Positions 536-8,895 of a stretch of 64,000 nucleotides of DNA are shown piece by piece (position 1 is the first letter of the stretch; each line of letters starts with the position of its first letter). Source of the stretch: Thermogladius calderae 1633 (GTDB taxonomy: Archaea; Thermoproteota; Thermoprotei_A; Sulfolobales; Desulfurococcaceae); the NCBI RefSeq assembly GCF_000264495.1, contig NC_017954.1:620001-684000 (forward strand), written 5' to 3'. The notes beneath the pieces were generated by a model that was given only the letters and a program-made list of their open reading frames with translations, did not search any database and was not told where the DNA came from. The position numbers and the translations under genes are program-made.

Positions 536-1648
536 ATGGTTGAACTTGGTAAGTTAAAGGAGGAAATGTACGGTTTGCTCCAAAAGCTGACAAGCGTCCA
601 CGCACCGAGCGGGTTTGAGTACTTGATTCACGACACCGTGATAAGCGAGCTGGAGAGACACGCTGACAAGGTGTGGGTGGACTCCTTGGGCAACGTGATC
701 GCGTTAAAGAAGGGAAGCAAGGGTGGGGCCAGCCTAATGCTCGCGGCCCACATGGACGAGATAGGGCTGTTCGTGTCCTATATAGAGGACGACGGTTTCC
801 TACGCGTCACCCCGATAGGCGGGGTTCTTGAGAGGACACTACTACACCAGCGCGTAGTCATAGTGACTAGAAGCGGGAGGACTGTGAAAGGCGTCATAGG
901 CTTAAAGCCCCCTCATGTAGTCAAGCCGGAGGAGGCCCAGAAGATACCTGAGATAAAAGAACTCTTCGTAGACATCGGGGCGTCATCGCGGGACGATGTG
1001 GAGAAAATGGGTGTAAGGGTTGGCGACGTAGCGGTGTTCGACAGGGCTATGGAGAGGTTGGCCGGGGATAGAGTCACAGGCAAGGCGTTTGACGATAGAG
1101 CAGGCCTCGCTGTGATGCTTAAAGCCTTCCAGCTGATCGAGAACAACGAGGCCGACGTGTACGCTGTGGCTACTGTCCAAGAGGAGGTCGGGCTCAAGGG
1201 TGCGAGGACTGCCGCCTTCGCTATCTCCCCCAGCGTGGCGATCGCCCTTGATGTCACTATTGCGAGCGACTTCCCCGGTGTAGCGAAGAGCGAGCAGTTC
1301 ACGAGGTTGGGTAGGGGCCCCGCGATCAAAATAGCCGACGGGAGGAACGCGTCAGGCCTCATCACACACCCCGAGATACTCAACTTCATGGTCAAGGTTG
1401 CCGAAGAGGAGAAGATACCCTATCAGCTAGAGGTCATACCTGGGGGGACTACTGACGCCTCGATAATAGCGTTGAACAAGGAGGGGGTACCGGCAGGCGT
1501 TGTCTCGGTGCCTGCGAGGTACATACACTCCCCCACGGAAGTAATAGACTTGAACGACCTCGCCTACGCGGTATTACTCACAGAAAAGATAGCCGAGAAA
1601 GCAGGTGTCGAGTGGCTCAACAGAATTAGGATGCGAGTCGTGAAGTAG
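536..1648 (+). CDS. M42 family metallopeptidase (TET-type aminopeptidase)
   Basis: M42 enzymes are cytoplasmic dinuclear-metal aminopeptidases that form large tetrahedral assemblies and trim peptides released by the proteasome. Visible hallmarks are the HAPSG motif near the N-terminus, the metal-binding AAHMDEIG, GKAFDDRAG, the catalytic EE in TVQEEVGLKGA, ALDVTIASDFPG, and the C-terminal PARYIHSPTEV that supplies the last metal ligand. The length (about 370 aa) is normal. The frame is open from a GTG at 527, but the ATG at 536 fits better, because a TATA-like cttatatc near 491-498 would put transcription start close to it. The gene is monocistronic. Confidence 0.93.
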   Translation: MVELGKLKEEMYGLLQKLTSVHAPSGFEYLIHDTVISELERHADKVWVDSLGNVIALKKGSKGGASLMLAAHMDEIGLFVSYIEDDGFLRVTPIGGVLERTLLHQRVVIVTRSGRTVKGVIGLKPPHVVKPEEAQKIPEIKELFVDIGASSRDDVEKMGVRVGDVAVFDRAMERLAGDRVTGKAFDDRAGLAVMLKAFQLIENNEADVYAVATVQEEVGLKGARTAAFAISPSVAIALDVTIASDFPGVAKSEQFTRLGRGPAIKIADGRNASGLITHPEILNFMVKVAEEEKIPYQLEVIPGGTTDASIIALNKEGVPAGVVSVPARYIHSPTEVIDLNDLAYAVLLTEKIAEKAGVEWLNRIRMRVVK

Positions 1649-1651
1649 CTC

Positions 1652-2164
1652 TCACAGACCGAAGAACATCTTTAACACCGTGGCCCCGGTCTCGACGACT
1701 GCTAAGACTATTAGAAAAGCCCCGAGCACGCCTAACTCGATACTGAGAACCCCCTTTCTAAGTTCCATACCCAGCACGTGCGCTACAAGCGCGCCAGTCC
1801 ACGCCCCGGTACCTGGTAGGGGTATCGCAACGAACACTGCTAGGCCGGCGAACTCAAGCCTCTCGTGCCCTCTCGCCTTCTTCCTAGCGTAGTCCACTAC
1901 TTTCCAGTAGAGTCTCTTCAGAAAACCGGGGGCTCTACTGTTGTTTACAATCTTCCTCTCAGCGAACCTCAAGGCGAGAACGGCTATGGGGGCCACCGCT
2001 AGATTACCCAATAAACCTGCGGCCAGTGCCACCATGTAGAGCGACTGGTCCTGTCTGAAGAAGTAGTACGCAAGCGGTATGGCCCCTCGTATCTCAGCCA
2101 CGGGCGAGAACCCCATCAGAAAGACGAGTAGTAGCTCGTACGCTACACTGCCCACGTGGAACAC
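1652..2164 (-). CDS. Small multidrug-export-like membrane protein (COG2426)
   Basis: A 170-aa polytopic membrane protein with about four hydrophobic segments. The motif MGFSPVAEIRGAIPLAYYF near the N-terminus and PLPGTGAWTGAL in the second half are typical of the Sm_multidrug_ex family (COG2426). That name comes from weak similarity to drug exporters; the real substrate is unknown. The gene ends 3 bp from the convergent M42 peptidase gene. It starts with GTG and shares an AT-rich promoter region (2172-2183) with the divergent DUF998 gene. Confidence 0.8.
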   Translation of the reverse strand: MFHVGSVAYELLLVFLMGFSPVAEIRGAIPLAYYFFRQDQSLYMVALAAGLLGNLAVAPIAVLALRFAERKIVNNSRAPGFLKRLYWKVVDYARKKARGHERLEFAGLAVFVAIPLPGTGAWTGALVAHVLGMELRKGVLSIELGVLGAFLIVLAVVETGATVLKMFFGL

Positions 2165-2763: not shown

Positions 2764-2864
2764 GCGTTTCCGAGGAGGAACGTGTTCCCCAAATAGACTC
2801 TTCTAAGCCCGTTCTCCTCCGCGATTTTCAACGCCCTCCTAGCGTGAGACCAACTCGTCCTAGG
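2754..2864 (-). pseudogene. Severed 3' end of the radical SAM gene whose 5' part is at 7746-8825
   Basis: Read on the minus strand from the CCTAGG at 2859-2864, this encodes Pro-Arg followed by 34 residues (beginning TSWSHARRALKIAEENG and ending VYLGNTFLLGNAYD) and a TGA stop at 2754-2756. It has no start codon. It looks like the C-terminus of PflA-like radical SAM proteins, where an ARRA.KIA helix leads into a final VYLGN strand. The 5' fragment at 7806-8825 ends with the same Pro-Arg codons (CCT AGG), and fusing the two restores a 374-codon protein. Confidence 0.85.
2859..2864. repeat. Left target-site duplication CCTAGG
   Basis: This 6-bp palindrome is also present at 7806-7811. The two copies flank the inserted segment, and only one is needed to rebuild the radical SAM reading frame. 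Whether a given copy belongs to the element or the host cannot be decided from one sequence. Confidence 0.75.
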
Positions 2865-2907
2865 AACCCAGCCGAAGGAGGGGGGTTCCCATCATGGTGT
2901 ACACCTT

Positions 2908-2931
2908 CCGATAACCCCCTCCTTCAGACCA
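2908..2931 (+). repeat. Left subterminal inverted repeat of the element
   Basis: CCGATAACCCCCTCC followed by TTCAGACCA. The reverse complement of 7762-7787 reads CCGATATGCCCCCCTCC followed by TTCAGACCA, so the two ends share 17 identical bases plus CCGATA, with a 2-nt length difference. The left copy lies about 43 bp inside the CCTAGG junction. Its CCCCCTCCTTC (2915-2925) can also pair with GAAGGAGGGGG just upstream (2874-2884), forming an 11-bp stem with a loop of about 30 nt. Confidence 0.7.
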
Positions 2932-2962
2932 GGGGAGGGATCCAAGATCCGCTCCCTCCCCT
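2931..2962. repeat. Perfect 10-bp hairpin at the left end of the element
   Basis: AGGGGAGGGA (2931-2940) is the exact reverse complement of TCCCTCCCCT (2953-2962), leaving a 12-nt loop. It directly abuts the left inverted repeat. Such stable GC-rich hairpins near element ends are typical of sites recognised as folded single strands, but could equally be a terminator. Confidence 0.6.
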
Positions 2963-3827
2963 AAATTCAAATGTTAGGATCTTAACGAGAGGGAGGACTA
3001 TGGAGGGGATTAGAGATTGAGAGTTGAATAGAGTGGGGAGCTAGGTGTCTAAGCTATGGATTCCACTCTATCCCCACACCCAAGCTAGGAGAGCTATCCA
3101 CAGGCGTAACGTTATCCGAGTGAGGTAAATGCCTAAAATGTTAAAGTGGGAGGGGAGCACACGAATCCACTCTTAGACCCCCCTCTAACTCGTGGAGCTC
3201 TTTATATCTCTCATTGACAGCTCCCTTACCTACACTTTGGAGGTTTCCTGGTTTTCTTTGGTTCCCCTTCTTTCCTCTCCACTTCTTTAACCCCCTGTTT
3301 ACTCAAGGGAGCTCACCACTATAGGTGTTATATTCTCGCATTCCTAATATAAGAAGGGTATACCTAAACGTTAAGTAGGAAACTCGAGTGTGTCCCAGGT
3401 AACCTTATAAAGTCTTTGCTCCAACAGCGTGATCTCATAATTTAGAGTTTACTAGATCATAGTATGTGGGACTTTACCTACACACTATACCCTTACCTAA
3501 AAACTCTCATGGTGCTTACCGGTTCCAAGTGATTTACATGTAGGATATTAGAGATTCTGATTATCGAAGCACATTATAGATGCTCCTAGAGAGTCTTGTT
3601 TGTTGATATTGTCACAGCCGACTTGTCACTAGAGTTCTAGACGGTAACCTCCCTCTCGTTTAAGTAACCTTACTTATTGTATGCTTCAAGTTTAGAGTTA
3701 TGGTGTTGTCCTTTAGGGGGTTGATACCGAAGTTAACATAGAGCTCCTGGAGGCTCGCTATCCATGTAAGAAGTGATTACGAGAATTTAAACTAGGGTTA
3801 AGCTCCTTCATATGAGGTGAATGGAGG
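2963..3827. other. Long non-coding left arm of the element
   Basis: About 865 bp with no convincing gene on either strand. It is AT-rich with many stop codons and short hairpins, for example atagagtgg (3028-3036) pairing with ccactctat (3063-3071). The sequence agttctagacgg near 3632-3643 recurs at about 7139-7150 in the right arm. A TATA-like gaatttaaac near 3782-3791 and the Shine-Dalgarno-like gaggtgaatggagg just before 3828 belong to the glycosylase gene. Confidence 0.5.
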
Positions 3828-4715
3828 TTGCCTAGAATACAGTTAAAGGAACTTTCTGAGAATGAGAGGAGAGAACTCCTTAAAAAGCTTGAGGAAATTG
3901 GTAAGAGTAATCTAAAGCAGGATCTAGAGCAAAGTCTACTATCTAAGCTGTCTCAGAGTGATAGATGGGATAAGGAGCTCTTATTAAGGTATCTCTTGTT
4001 AGCTTCTATTCTCGATCAACAAGCTGAATCGGTAAGTGCGAGGAATACAGTAATTAAACTCTATGAGGAGTTTGGGAGAGACTTTTTCATGAAACCCCAT
4101 GACTCGATAAATAGAATCCACGATATATTAGATAGAGTCCTCAAAGTCTATGAGCCTAAATCTAGGGTTATTAGGGTTTCGAAGGAGGGTGTATCTCTGA
4201 TGAGGGTTGGTGGTTTCCTCCTCGCACTACTCAGTCTATCCTCACAGTACGGCTCCCTACAACGTTACTTTAGTTCCTTTAGAGGACCAAGAGAGCTACT
4301 TAATAAGGGTATACTGGGTAACGTACTCCTTAAAGGACTCTTATACGAGAAGGCCGCTCGAATGTATGTAGGCTGGATTACCCACCCAGACTTACACATT
4401 GATATCTTCGAAGGACGCTGCGGGTATAACGAGATACCTATGCCTGTAAACGGTCACGTGTCCAAGGTTATGGCGAGAACAGGGTTCCTAAACTCTGTCC
4501 TAGTGGAGGAGGGTAGACCAATAGTGAAGGCTAACGAGGAAAGGAAGAGGATAGAGAATCTTGTTAAGAGATACTATCCTCGAGGCGACTTCTTCATGAT
4601 AGACTATGGTGCTTTCTACATAGGTTTCAAGTATTGTAGAGAGGAGAATCCAAATTGTAACGCATGTCCAATATCGAATTTATGTAAGAGGAACACTAAG
4701 GTGCGCGCCTTCTAG
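3828..4715 (+). CDS. HhH-GPD (EndoIII-like) DNA glycosylase with Fe-S cluster and Asp-to-Asn change
   Basis: The 295-aa protein ends with Cys270-x6-Cys277-x2-Cys280-x5-Cys286, the exact [4Fe-4S] spacing of endonuclease III/MutY-type glycosylases. The stretch 203-221 (IPMPVNGHVSKVMARTGFL) aligns with the family signature PVDTHVxRVxxRLG, which places Asn208 where the catalytic Asp normally is, followed by Gly209. Lys175 in LLYEKAARM sits where the Schiff-base Lys of bifunctional members lies; the hairpin glycines before it are poorly conserved. Such glycosylases next to methyltransferases, as in archaeal thymine-mismatch glycosylases, repair deaminated methylcytosine. The start is TTG after a strong gaggtgaatggagg site. 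Substrate and activity are inferred. Confidence 0.75.
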   Translation: MPRIQLKELSENERRELLKKLEEIGKSNLKQDLEQSLLSKLSQSDRWDKELLLRYLLLASILDQQAESVSARNTVIKLYEEFGRDFFMKPHDSINRIHDILDRVLKVYEPKSRVIRVSKEGVSLMRVGGFLLALLSLSSQYGSLQRYFSSFRGPRELLNKGILGNVLLKGLLYEKAARMYVGWITHPDLHIDIFEGRCGYNEIPMPVNGHVSKVMARTGFLNSVLVEEGRPIVKANEERKRIENLVKRYYPRGDFFMIDYGAFYIGFKYCREENPNCNACPISNLCKRNTKVRAF

Positions 4716-6060: not shown

Positions 6061-7079
6061 CCCCCCACATCGCTAGGTAGTTTCTGTAAGTATGTCTTTG
6101 TAGCCTCAAGAGCGTAGTAGAGGAGCTCTCCGTTAACAACCATGTATTGATTACGATATTCATGATTACACTCAACTAGCTTACCTCTAGCTTTACCTTC
6201 TATCCTGGGTTTAAGGATCCCCCTGATGGATTTCGGTGTATTAGATGCGAGCTTAAACATTACCTGTGGTCTCTTCCCAGCTATCTTAGCGACACCTACC
6301 TTAACACCCGTTCTAACATTTGGATCAAATTCAATCCTAAGTCTTAACCTATCGACTATGGACTCGTTTAACCCGTTCTCACGTGCTTTGATACGTAGAT
6401 AGTCTAGAACCCTGTGGAAGCAACCCATACAGAAGCTGAAGTATCTCACTGGAATACCTACATCCCTCATATCCCCTATGTAAGCATAATAGGTTACCTC
6501 CTTACCCCCCTGCTGGATCTCACGTTCAACTTTAAGACTTCTAGAGGCTAAGATACCTGGTTTAACTACGTCCTTAAGTAGGTTTAGGAGCTTCTCTATT
6601 AAGTCGGCGTTTACATAGAACATAACCCAGTTGGTCCACTTTTCCGGGTTAACCCCTCTGATAGATGTCCTCTCGAGGTGATAACCTTTAACGTCGAGTT
6701 TTAGATGTATGTTACCGTTCTCGTCATAACCTACATCAACGTACACCTCGTCTGGTGGCATGTAGAACGCTGTCTTACCTCTAAAGGTGGTCTTCTCCCA
6801 TCCTAGAGACTTAGGATCTAGTTTAAGCCACTCTGGGGGTATTAATCTCTCTATCGTTATAGGGTTGGGTTTTCCAAGCCAGCCTCTGAAGTTAGAGTAG
6901 ATTATCGGTATAGGTGTCTTAACCCTCCCATCTCTACTACTGGGAACCTGAAATCCATTGTTAATAAGCTCCTCCTGAAGTTCTAGGGAAGCACTAAAGT
7001 ATATCTGTAGCGAATCAACCTCATACCTCTTAACCCATCTAACCTCCCCATCCAAACTCAGAACACACTCCCCACCCAA
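6057..7079 (-). CDS. Unknown 340-aa protein, candidate restriction endonuclease
   Basis: It is convergent with the methyltransferase and overlaps its stop by 4 bp, the place a cognate restriction enzyme would take. I recognise no family. Residues 110-131 contain several acidic residues followed by a hydrophobic strand ending LKLDVKG, compatible with a PD-(D/E)xK-type Asp-x-Lys (D129, K131), but this is weak. Four cysteines are scattered, without a zinc motif. Translation probably starts at the TTG at 7079, just after a good ggtgat site. A nuclease role is inferred from context only. Confidence 0.6.
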   Translation of the reverse strand: MGGECVLSLDGEVRWVKRYEVDSLQIYFSASLELQEELINNGFQVPSSRDGRVKTPIPIIYSNFRGWLGKPNPITIERLIPPEWLKLDPKSLGWEKTTFRGKTAFYMPPDEVYVDVGYDENGNIHLKLDVKGYHLERTSIRGVNPEKWTNWVMFYVNADLIEKLLNLLKDVVKPGILASRSLKVEREIQQGGKEVTYYAYIGDMRDVGIPVRYFSFCMGCFHRVLDYLRIKARENGLNESIVDRLRLRIEFDPNVRTGVKVGVAKIAGKRPQVMFKLASNTPKSIRGILKPRIEGKARGKLVECNHEYRNQYMVVNGELLYYALEATKTYLQKLPSDVGG

Positions 7080-7403
7080 ATCACCTTAAACTATTTTATC
7101 TTCTTCCTCGAATACACTCTACCCTTCACCCTTACCTAGTTCTAGACGGAGGTCGTTAGTAGCTCATAGCATAAAATACCACTAAATACACGGTAACCTC
7201 TAGGTTAGCTATTGAATCGGAGGGTTTAAAGCCGTAATTGCTATGTTACACAATGTTACCAAGGCTATACATCCTACACCTACACCCCACCTCCCCCTCC
7301 TCTCCGCACCTCTACATGAGGATTTATCCCTCTGTTAGCATACTACAATAACTTTTAATCCTACTGTTACCATGTTAGTAGAGTTTCATACCTATTCGTT
7401 CCT
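7080..7403. other. Non-coding right arm of the element, inner part
   Basis: AT-rich and without a plausible gene. It must contain the promoter of the minus-strand 340-aa gene, and the ggtgat site next to 7079 is visible. The short sequence agttctagacgg shared with the left arm lies at about 7139-7150. Nothing else is recognisable. Confidence 0.4.
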
Positions 7404-7640
7404 TGTTGAACGAGAGACATCAAGGAGGACTAGTAGCACATCGGTAGTACCCATGTGGTGGGACTCCATCGTAGGTGTACCTGGTGATGGTAACGATGGT
7501 CTGAAAAACCAGTAGCAAATCACTACGATGTACCATTAGGAGGGACTTGTAGAGAATGGGATGCTTGTGGAAGCCATCAGAGAAGTGAAGCTAGCATGGT
7601 AACGACGGTGTGGAATGTCCGTAGCAAATCATTGTCATAA
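7404..7640 (+). repeat. Three degenerate copies of an approximately 45-nt RNA-like unit
   Basis: Copies lie at about 7404-7450, 7486-7534 and 7594-7640. The shared core is (A/G)TGGTAACGA, a short variable hairpin, then (C)AGTAGCAAATCA; the first copy is the most diverged. In the middle copy CATCGTAG (7467-7474) pairs exactly with CTACGATG (7523-7530), and TGGT-CTGAAAA-ACCA (7497-7511) makes a 4-bp stem with a 7-nt loop. This looks like structured RNA, but the strand is assumed and the class is not recognised. Confidence 0.45.
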
Positions 7641-7642
7641 AA

Positions 7643-7702
7643 CGGGAAAAATCAAGTCCATGGAGGGGGATAAATCCCATGATCATGAGCGGGAAAAATC
7701 AA
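7643..7702. repeat. 13-bp direct repeat CGGGAAAAATCAA
   Basis: Exact copies are at 7643-7655 and 7690-7702, 47 bp apart, just inside the right end of the element. They could be binding sites for a mobility or control protein, or remnants of an older duplication. Confidence 0.55.
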
Positions 7703-7751
7703 CTCTCATCCGGCGGTGTACAGGATTCATGGTGATATCCCCCTCTCACGA

Positions 7752-7779
7752 CCCCCCTCCATGGTCTGAAGGAGGGGGG
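7752..7779. repeat. Perfect 9-bp hairpin at the right end of the element
   Basis: CCCCCCTCC (7752-7760) pairs with GGAGGGGGG (7771-7779) around a 10-nt loop. It overlaps the right subterminal inverted repeat and mirrors the GC-rich hairpins of the left end. Confidence 0.6.
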
Positions 7780-7787
7780 CATATCGG
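7762..7787 (-). repeat. Right subterminal inverted repeat of the element
   Basis: This is the inverted partner of 2908-2931. TGGTCTGAAGGAGGGGG is identical to the reverse complement of 2915-2931 and is followed by a matching ATCGG. It ends 18 bp inside the right CCTAGG. The foreign tail added to the truncated radical SAM protein is read from this repeat. Confidence 0.7.
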
Positions 7788-7805
7788 CTGAAGAGGGGGG
7801 AGCTC

Positions 7806-7811
7806 CCTAGG
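7806..7811. repeat. Right target-site duplication CCTAGG
   Basis: The second copy of the 6-bp palindrome found at 2859-2864. On the minus strand it encodes Pro339-Arg340 (CCT AGG), the last residues shared by the two halves of the interrupted gene. Confidence 0.75.
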
Positions 7812-8895
7812 GAGGTCGTTGAGGTAGAAGTCCGGGTGGAAGCCCAGAAAGACGACCGGTATGTCGGGGTTCAGGCCCGCGACAAACTTCGTGATACCGT
7901 CCAGCTCGTAGTCGTCTAGGTAGCCTGGTACGAGTAGTACCGATACGACTAGTAGCGGGGGCTCCCTCCTCCTTTCAAAGAGCTTCGCCGCTCTCTTCAC
8001 GTTCTCCCTGATCAGGTGAACGTGTTCGGGTCTCACCCCCGTCAACGCGCTGTAGACCTCTGGGCTCCATGCCTTCATGTCGACCTTAACTATGCCCCCT
8101 GTCTCGAGTGAGAGCTCGACCGCCTTCTCGAAGATCGCCGGGTTCCAGAGCCCGTTGGTCTCCCAACAGACCCTGAAAACCTTGAGTCCGACTTCTTTTG
8201 CCTTTTTAATCATCCTCCTTGCCGCGACGATGGCCGCGGTGGAGAACACAGACGGGTCTCCACCGAAGAAGCAGACGCAGGTGGTCCGCTCGTTTACAGC
8301 CTTCACAAGGTCATCGATAGTGAAGCGAGGTCTCTTCTTAACCGCTATGAAGTGGTGTTCCCAGTTCTGACAGAAGAGGCAATTCAGATTACAAGAGCCG
8401 AAGAATACAGCGATGTTGTAAAAGCCCGGCTCCCCGGTGGGGGTGAGAGCGTAGACCGGGTAGCCAACTCCTCTAGCTGCCGGGCATACCTCGACCGCTA
8501 CGCAGTTCGTCGGGTGGGGGTCGTAGTACACGTGGCCCAGCATAGTATCTGCTCTGAGAAAGCCGACGACCTTCCCAGCGGTCGAGTACCTGAGTCCACA
8601 ATAGCCGACCTCCCCATTACTGAGAGAGCAAGACCTACCGCACAGGGTACACTTCAAACCGTTGCCAGTAGGCTCCTGCTGTTTGCCCAGCTCTCTTCGG
8701 ACCTCTTCGTGGAGCTTCAATACGTGGTCGAGTGCGCTCTTGTTCCTCCTTAGACAGTCTACGCAAACTCCTAGAAAGGACGAGATCGTCCTCGAGGACC
8801 GTCCGCAAAAAGAGCACGTGCCCATATCTACAGCACTACTCCTGGCCTCCCCACTTTGATCTCGTGGTAAGAGGGGTTATAGGGATTAAACCCTG

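What the first reader, a model, noticed from the sequence alone, without database searches (positions are those of the whole stretch)
3828..4715. EndoIII-like glycosylase with Asn-Gly in place of the catalytic Asp
The [4Fe-4S] motif (C270-x6-C277-x2-C280-x5-C286) and PVNGHVSKVMARTG identify a HhH-GPD protein, but the catalytic Asp of the PVDTHV signature is Asn208, followed by Gly209. Either it is a non-catalytic DNA-binding partner, or it is activated differently. Asn-Gly is the dipeptide most prone to deamidation to Asp/isoAsp, which is fast at hyperthermophile temperatures, so a self-maturing or heat-timed enzyme is conceivable. Lys175 remains where a lyase Lys would be.
Basis: partly seen in the sequence, partly recalled or inferred. 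Interest (0 to 1): 0.7.

Follow-up and report, generated by a model that had tools for sequence, protein, structure and literature searches.

The report
Restriction-linked glycosylase with altered catalytic residue
A heat-loving archaeon carries, beside a DNA-cutting defence system, a DNA-repair-type protein whose key catalytic residue has changed from aspartate to asparagine, so it probably binds DNA without removing bases; the self-activation by heat that was first suggested is not supported.

Summary
The 295-aa ORF has K175, N208-G209 and C270-x6-C277-x2-C280-x5-C286. N208 sits at the HhH-GPD catalytic Asp column: eight of nine aligned HhH-GPD/4Fe-4S proteins, including the three others of this genome, have Asp there; only this one has Asn. 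The only other intact member found (L004/L033, a Thermoprotei MAG) reads VDGHV.

The gene lies in a restriction-modification island: a methyltransferase 66-68% identical to one beside a SuaI-type (GGCC, m4C) enzyme, and a REase matching PADLOC PDLC03542. In L004 the Asp version follows a homologous methyltransferase by four bases, where related systems carry the REase. So this is a rare RM-linked HhH-GPD family.

Best reading: the window copy is a catalytically silenced member. The same change leaves human OGG1 inactive but able to recognise substrate (PMC4207560 passages). Heat-timed deamidation is not supported: the Gly is inherited from Asp-Gly forms, Asn-Gly is not depleted here (46 against 45.5 expected), and one base change suffices. 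Structure prediction failed (pLDDT 36.5), so K175 as lyase Lys is untested. What the family acts on is unknown.

The parts
3828..4715 (+). HhH-GPD/4Fe-4S protein, 295 aa, TTG start
   Evidence: by eye a TTTAAA box at 3786-3791 and GAGGTGA at 3814-3820 (sequence, not tested)
4449..4454 (+). codons of N208-G209 (AAC GGT), at the catalytic Asp column
4350..4352 (+). codon of K175, candidate lyase lysine (K181 in L004, same spacing of 33 to the Asp/Asn)
   Evidence: structure not tested
4635..4685 (+). 4Fe-4S cysteine cluster C270-C277-C280-C286
4804..5127 (+). 107-aa protein of unknown family; a homologue (45%) stands before the MTase in L081
5134..6060 (+). N6/N4 DNA methyltransferase with TSPPYYN; predicted GGCC m4C by homology to the S. 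acidocaldarius enzyme beside SuaI
   Evidence: PMC5809426
6057..7079 (-). Type II restriction endonuclease (PADLOC PDLC03542, E 1e-104), convergent with the MTase

Best explanation
The protein is a divergent HhH-GPD DNA glycosylase homologue with a 4Fe-4S cluster motif, belonging to a very rare archaeal family that travels with one clade of Type II (predicted GGCC, m4C) methyltransferases. The ancestral, Asp-bearing form was most likely a base-excising partner of the modification system, comparable in role to Mig in a GGCC system (recalled). In this genome one G-to-A change turned the Asp-Gly of the active site into Asn-Gly. By analogy with OGG1 D268N the window copy should still bind DNA and recognise its target, but should break the glycosidic bond very poorly or not at all. 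It is then either a retained DNA-binding accessory of the island or a recently silenced enzyme. Shown: gene, cysteine motif, Asn at the Asp column, linkage to the MTase in both intact cases, Asp in the homologue. Inferred: cluster assembly, target, loss of activity, retained binding.
For: Asp column: 8 of 9 aligned HhH-GPD/FeS proteins have Asp, only the window has Asn; Asp invariant in 6 of 6 Nth, 6 of 6 AGOG-like and 6 of 6 Pyrobaculum/Thermofilum-like sequences. Homologue L004 has VDGHV. Linkage: both intact members lie beside MTases 67% identical to each other. The MTase clade occurs in 24 of 398 genomes and the window's REase family in 7 of 398, all 7 among those 24. G081 carries the MTase directly before a PDLC03572 REase; among the 14 control genomes that family rings only in S. 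acidocaldarius, where SuaI/M.SuaI, GG-m4C-C, is said to appear to be the only RM system (PMC5809426 passages). OGG1 D268N: 'no catalytic activity', and for 268 Ala/Asn 'substrate recognition is retained' (PMC4207560 passages); called inactive also in PMC12318605 (passages). Not simply decaying: of columns invariant in four Pyrobaculum-type relatives, the window departs at 13 where L004 keeps the residue, L004 at 26 where the window keeps it, and both keep 32; the ORF and cysteines are intact.
Against: Only two intact members are known, so linkage and residue pattern rest on n = 2. No structure: AF2 pLDDT 36.5. No activity data. The same cassette (107-aa gene, MTase, REase) exists without the HhH gene in L081, and no ORF with the FeS Cys motif was seen in the 23 other fetched MTase loci (27 loci examined in all), so the gene is dispensable to the system. 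N208 comes from one genome; a sequencing error was not excluded. GGCC is a prediction by homology; GGCC is only mildly under-represented in the window (241 against 306.2 expected).
Confidence: 0.5

Rival explanations
1. Self-maturing enzyme: N208 deamidates at growth temperature to Asp or isoAsp and so switches the glycosylase on over time.
For: Asn-Gly is present in what is very probably a hyperthermophile (recalled identity); Asp is the family residue.
Against: The Gly is inherited: L004 has Asp-Gly, as has a MutY/Mig-like half gene of the same genome (VDGNV). Asn-Gly is at chance level in 64 window ORFs, 46 against 45.5, so the pair is unremarkable. The residue lies at a helix N-terminus in OGG1 (PMC4207560 passage). 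Deamidation of Asn-Gly gives mostly isoAsp (recalled). No precedent found in the searches.
Confidence: 0.06
2. Active without the Asp: the Lys (K175) or another acid such as E202 carries the reaction on a labile or modified base.
For: K175 is conserved with the same spacing in L004; E202 lies 6 residues before N208 and L004 has an Asp there. A remote DUF2400-type group has invariant Thr in this column, so superfamily members without the Asp exist.
Against: OGG1 D268N is inactive (PMC4207560, PMC12318605 passages). The acid at -6 is shared with the Asp-bearing L004, so it does not look compensatory. The DUF2400 alignment has only 68.6% probability and that group's activity is unknown.
Confidence: 0.12
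3. Non-functional relic or sequence error: the gene is on its way out, as truncated copies elsewhere show, or the base call is wrong.
For: Two N-terminal remnants with stop codons in one other archaeal genus (G388, G281). The gene is absent from the congeners listed, G149, G567 and G614. A dedicated REase is already present.
Against: The ORF is intact with all four Cys and a plausible start; fewer departures from conserved positions than L004 (13 against 26); the one-contig genome is 99.95% complete, which lowers but does not exclude a base error.
Confidence: 0.15
4. The family is a base-excision restriction partner: in L004 the Asp-bearing HhH protein itself attacks unmethylated GGCC, and in the window a REase has taken over while the HhH copy lost catalysis.
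For: L004: MTase then HhH gene 4 bases apart (MTase 1884-2861, HhH 953-1879, minus strand), the slot where L067 and related loci carry the SuaI-type REase. G292, 93% complete, shows neither PDLC03542 nor PDLC03572. Restriction glycosylases exist (R.PabI family, PMC10273834 passages).
Against: R.PabI has a different fold (recalled); a REase of another family may lie off the 3.4-kb contig, and an unidentified ORF of at least 184 aa follows the HhH gene; the MTase could be an orphan. Window HhH and REase have similar GC3, 0.45 each, which does not suggest that the HhH is an older relic.
Confidence: 0.17

Closest known systems
Endonuclease III (Nth) / MutY FeS branch of the HhH-GPD superfamily
   Same: Cys cluster of the Nth kind, V-D-x-H-V segment, QQAES helix resembling the SAQATD helix of Nth (recalled); hhalign 96.5% with archaeal Nth
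   Different: Asn for Asp; no canonical LPGVGxKTA hairpin; Lys-to-Asp/Asn spacing of 33 instead of 18 in Nth (K134-D152 of L014); 295 aa with a long middle part
AGOG (archaeal 8-oxoG glycosylase, PF09171) and AGOG-like FeS proteins
   Same: Lys-to-Asp spacing: 32 in AGOG (K140, D172; PMC3397491 passage) against 33 here; hhalign 97.3% with the AGOG-like FeS proteins over 86 columns
   Different: No PF09171 match for the window protein; Asn for Asp; linked to an RM system
   Same: Alignable over most of the length, 25-27% identity for the four Pyrobaculum-type sequences in A3; hhalign 96.3% over 229 columns
   Different: Asp in 6 of 6; no RM context seen in the short loci held (not searched further); no Lys aligned at 175
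Mig (T/G mismatch glycosylase of a GGCC RM plasmid in a methanogen; context recalled)
   Same: HhH-GPD FeS protein encoded beside a GGCC modification system
   Different: Mig keeps the catalytic Asp and pairs with an m5C MTase (recalled); here the MTase is predicted m4C
R.PabI family restriction glycosylases (PMC10273834, PMC4357717)
   Same: A glycosylase-type protein paired with a Type II MTase
   Different: Other fold (recalled); no HhH-GPD restriction enzyme is named in the passages read; the window has a separate REase

Membership tests
HhH-GPD superfamily (PF00730) | Profile match over cut-off | tested here: not met
   17.7 bits against cut-off 26.2; profile-profile comparisons do support homology
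HhH-GPD superfamily (PF00730) | Catalytic Asp at the end of the GPD segment | tested here: not met
   Asn208; Asp in 8 of 9 aligned proteins
Endonuclease III / MutY FeS branch | C-x6-C-x2-C-x5-C cluster | tested here: met
   C270, C277, C280, C286
Bifunctional glycosylase/lyase | Lys in the active site near the Asp | tested here: inconclusive
   K175 conserved 2 of 2, spacing 33; model too poor to place it
AGOG (PF09171) | Profile match | tested here: not met
   No PF09171 hit at E up to 1 for the window protein or L004
Type II RM system (island) | MTase and cognate REase side by side | tested here: met
   PADLOC MTase_II 6e-86 and REase_II 1e-104; all 7 genomes with the REase also hold the MTase
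SuaI-type GGCC m4C methyltransferase | Homology to M.SuaI; m4C at GGCC | tested here: inconclusive
   66-68% identity to the G081 MTase that lies before the PDLC03572 REase; no methylome data
R.PabI restriction glycosylases | R.PabI fold and excision of a base in the unmethylated site | not tested
   no search aimed at the R.PabI family was run; excision cannot be tested here

The most novel reading that the evidence does not exclude
HhH-GPD proteins have been drafted, independently of the R.PabI fold, as base-excision partners of a Type II GGCC methyltransferase (the MTase-HhH pair of L004), and the window holds a natural D-to-N version kept as a binder that reads methylated, unmethylated or mismatched GGCC without excising.
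Probability: 0.12. Interest if true: 0.75.

Novelty: new variant of a known kind. Interest (0 to 1): 0.36.

Why it matters
If the linkage holds, it gives a second kind of glycosylase gene carried by a GGCC modification system in hyperthermophiles, this time with an m4C methyltransferase, a mark often thought to avoid the m5C deamination problem (recalled). The natural Asp/Asn pair (L004 against window) would be a ready comparison of an active and a silenced HhH-GPD enzyme in one family.

Tried and rejected
Profile search of solved structures gave only weak hits; the best sequence, ROS1 in 7yho/7yhp, itself has PVN where the sister entry 7yhq has PVD and looks like an engineered inactive form, so it is no natural precedent.

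Searches for more members: 398 genomes by protein; 2, 3, 90, 197, 81 and 229 by alignment, with overlaps, all in one phylum; genome contigs found only L033; viral contigs, plasmids and phages none. The genome contigs and viral scans use two short peptide patterns and can miss members. Further viral scans with the Nth, AGOG-like and Pyrobaculum-type alignments were meant to deepen the alignment and gave only seven remote Nth-like loci, not used. In one search many more matches were listed (145 of 398 genomes had one), but apart from L004, the two remnants, the Pyrobaculum-type and the DUF2400-type proteins, those I looked at match mainly the C-terminal FeS part (ordinary Nth, MutY or AGOG-like).

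Rejected: deamidation as an adaptation (see rivals). Rejected: E202 as compensating acid, because L004 has an acid there too. Papers: searches found 0 papers; one search found one irrelevant paper; listings were seen. Read only as passages: PMC5809426, PMC10609329, PMC10273834, PMC3397491, PMC4207560, PMC12318605. PMC4357717: listing and start of abstract only.

Full report
What is there. The ORF at 3828-4715 is real and as described: 295 aa, TTG start, K175, N208-G209, C270-C277-C280-C286, codons 208-209 AAC GGT. Family libraries recognise it only weakly: HhH-GPD 17.7 bits, below cut-off, mutY E 1.8e-5, below cut-off.

The residue. In all three comparisons N208 falls on an Asp that is invariant in those sets, 6 of 6 each. 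In a joint alignment of nine proteins, including the three other HhH-GPD genes of this genome, eight have Asp and only the window protein has Asn. The only other intact family member, L004 (same contig as L033, QMRW01000140.1, a Thermoprotei MAG), is 36% identical and reads VDGHVGKVFARTG against VNGHVSKVMARTG. The change needs one base, GAC to AAC. K175 is matched by K181 of L004 with the same spacing of 33 to the Asp/Asn; AGOG has 32 (K140, D172; PMC3397491 passages). Whether K175 lies in the active site could not be tested: the model has pLDDT 36.5.

The surroundings. Downstream are a 107-aa protein of unknown family, an N6/N4 methyltransferase (PADLOC MTase_II, 6e-86) and a convergent Type II REase (PDLC03542, 1e-104). 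The MTase clade is in 24 of 398 genomes of the phylum, the REase family in 7 of 398, all 7 among the 24. In 6 of the 7 the two genes are on one contig within about 1 kb; in G142 they are on two contigs. In genome G081 the MTase (66-68% identical) stands directly before a PDLC03572 REase; among 14 control genomes that model rings only in S. acidocaldarius. There SuaI/M.SuaI, GGCC with m4C, is said to appear to be the only RM system (PMC5809426 passages; also HG15 in PMC10609329 passages). So the window MTase is predicted to make m4C at GGCC. GGCC is mildly scarce in the window, 241 against 306.2 expected.

Linkage. In L004 the Asp-bearing gene follows the MTase by four bases (HhH 953-1879, MTase 1884-2861 on the minus strand), the slot in which five other loci carry a SuaI-type REase cluster (L067, L068, L069, L076, L077; PADLOC tested on three of them). 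G292, the genome of L004, shows neither REase family. Thus both intact members sit beside the same MTase clade in distant genomes. A rough estimate (inference) is that a random gene has about 0.3% chance to lie within two genes of a given gene in a genome of about 1,500 genes, so two of two is very unlikely by chance. Against this: 23 other fetched MTase loci have no ORF with a matching Cys motif (27 loci examined in all; stretches of 4.9-15 kb), and L081 has the same 107-aa/MTase/REase cassette without the HhH gene.

Mechanism. OGG1 with Asn in this place is described as without catalytic activity, while 268 Ala/Asn variants retain substrate recognition; the same review also notes weaker DNA binding of D268N (PMC4207560 passages); PMC12318605 passages also call D268N inactive. 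The window protein is therefore most likely a DNA binder without, or almost without, base excision. It does not look like a generally decaying gene: at columns invariant in four Pyrobaculum-type relatives it departs at 13 where L004 keeps the residue, against 26 the other way, 32 kept by both; columns where both depart or that have gaps were not counted. GC3 is 0.45 for HhH and REase, 0.50 for the 107-aa gene, 0.65 for the MTase and 0.69-0.71 for two flanking genes, in line with a young, mixed island.

Deamidation. The proposal that Asn-Gly matures to Asp fails to gain support: Gly is inherited from Asp-Gly forms, Asn-Gly is at chance level in 64 window ORFs (46 against 45.5), and the residue is at a helix N-terminus in OGG1 (PMC4207560 passages). 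It is not excluded by experiment.

What the ancestral enzyme did is open. A Mig-like repair role next to GGCC modification (recalled precedent), or a base-excision restriction role as in the R.PabI family (PMC10273834 passages; the terms HhH and helix-hairpin-helix occur 0 times there), are both possible. Both rest on a single Asp-bearing member.

Verdict. New variant of a known kind, interest moderate.

Noticed in passing
G000:C1:1143942-1145751 (same genome, outside the window; L103, L104, L003): A MutY/Mig-like HhH-GPD gene appears split in two halves around a 382-aa ORF that looks TnpB-like by eye; the C-terminal half keeps VDGNV and the FeS cysteines.
   Followed up: partly
L007, L012, L016, L017, L019, L020: DUF2400/TIGR02757-type proteins of about 416-419 aa with invariant Thr at the catalytic Asp column and an extra C-terminal domain with a weak Phage_endo_I match (L007): another Asp-less branch, perhaps fused to a nuclease.
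   Followed up: partly
L008-L010, L013, L018, L023: An unnamed FeS HhH-like family in Pyrobaculum- and Thermofilum-like genomes with conserved Asp and no Pfam match over cut-off in the one tested (L008).
   Followed up: partly
L006, L015, L022, L026, L031, L032: AGOG-like proteins with a 4Fe-4S cysteine motif and PVDNH (PIDNH in L022); L006 just passes the AGOG cut-off (26.6 against 26.1 bits).
   Followed up: no
L081 (G367) 6936-7849: The MTase of a window-like cassette is broken into two overlapping frames while its REase is intact.
   Followed up: no
L091 9658-9897 and L092 9865-10059: N-terminal remnants of this HhH family (45% and 39% identity over 82 and 66 residues) in two genomes of one other genus, without the rest of the gene or an MTase nearby.
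   Followed up: partly
2764-3827: About 1 kb without a listed ORF of 80 aa or more before the HhH gene; no HhH remnant found in it by tblastn.
   Followed up: partly
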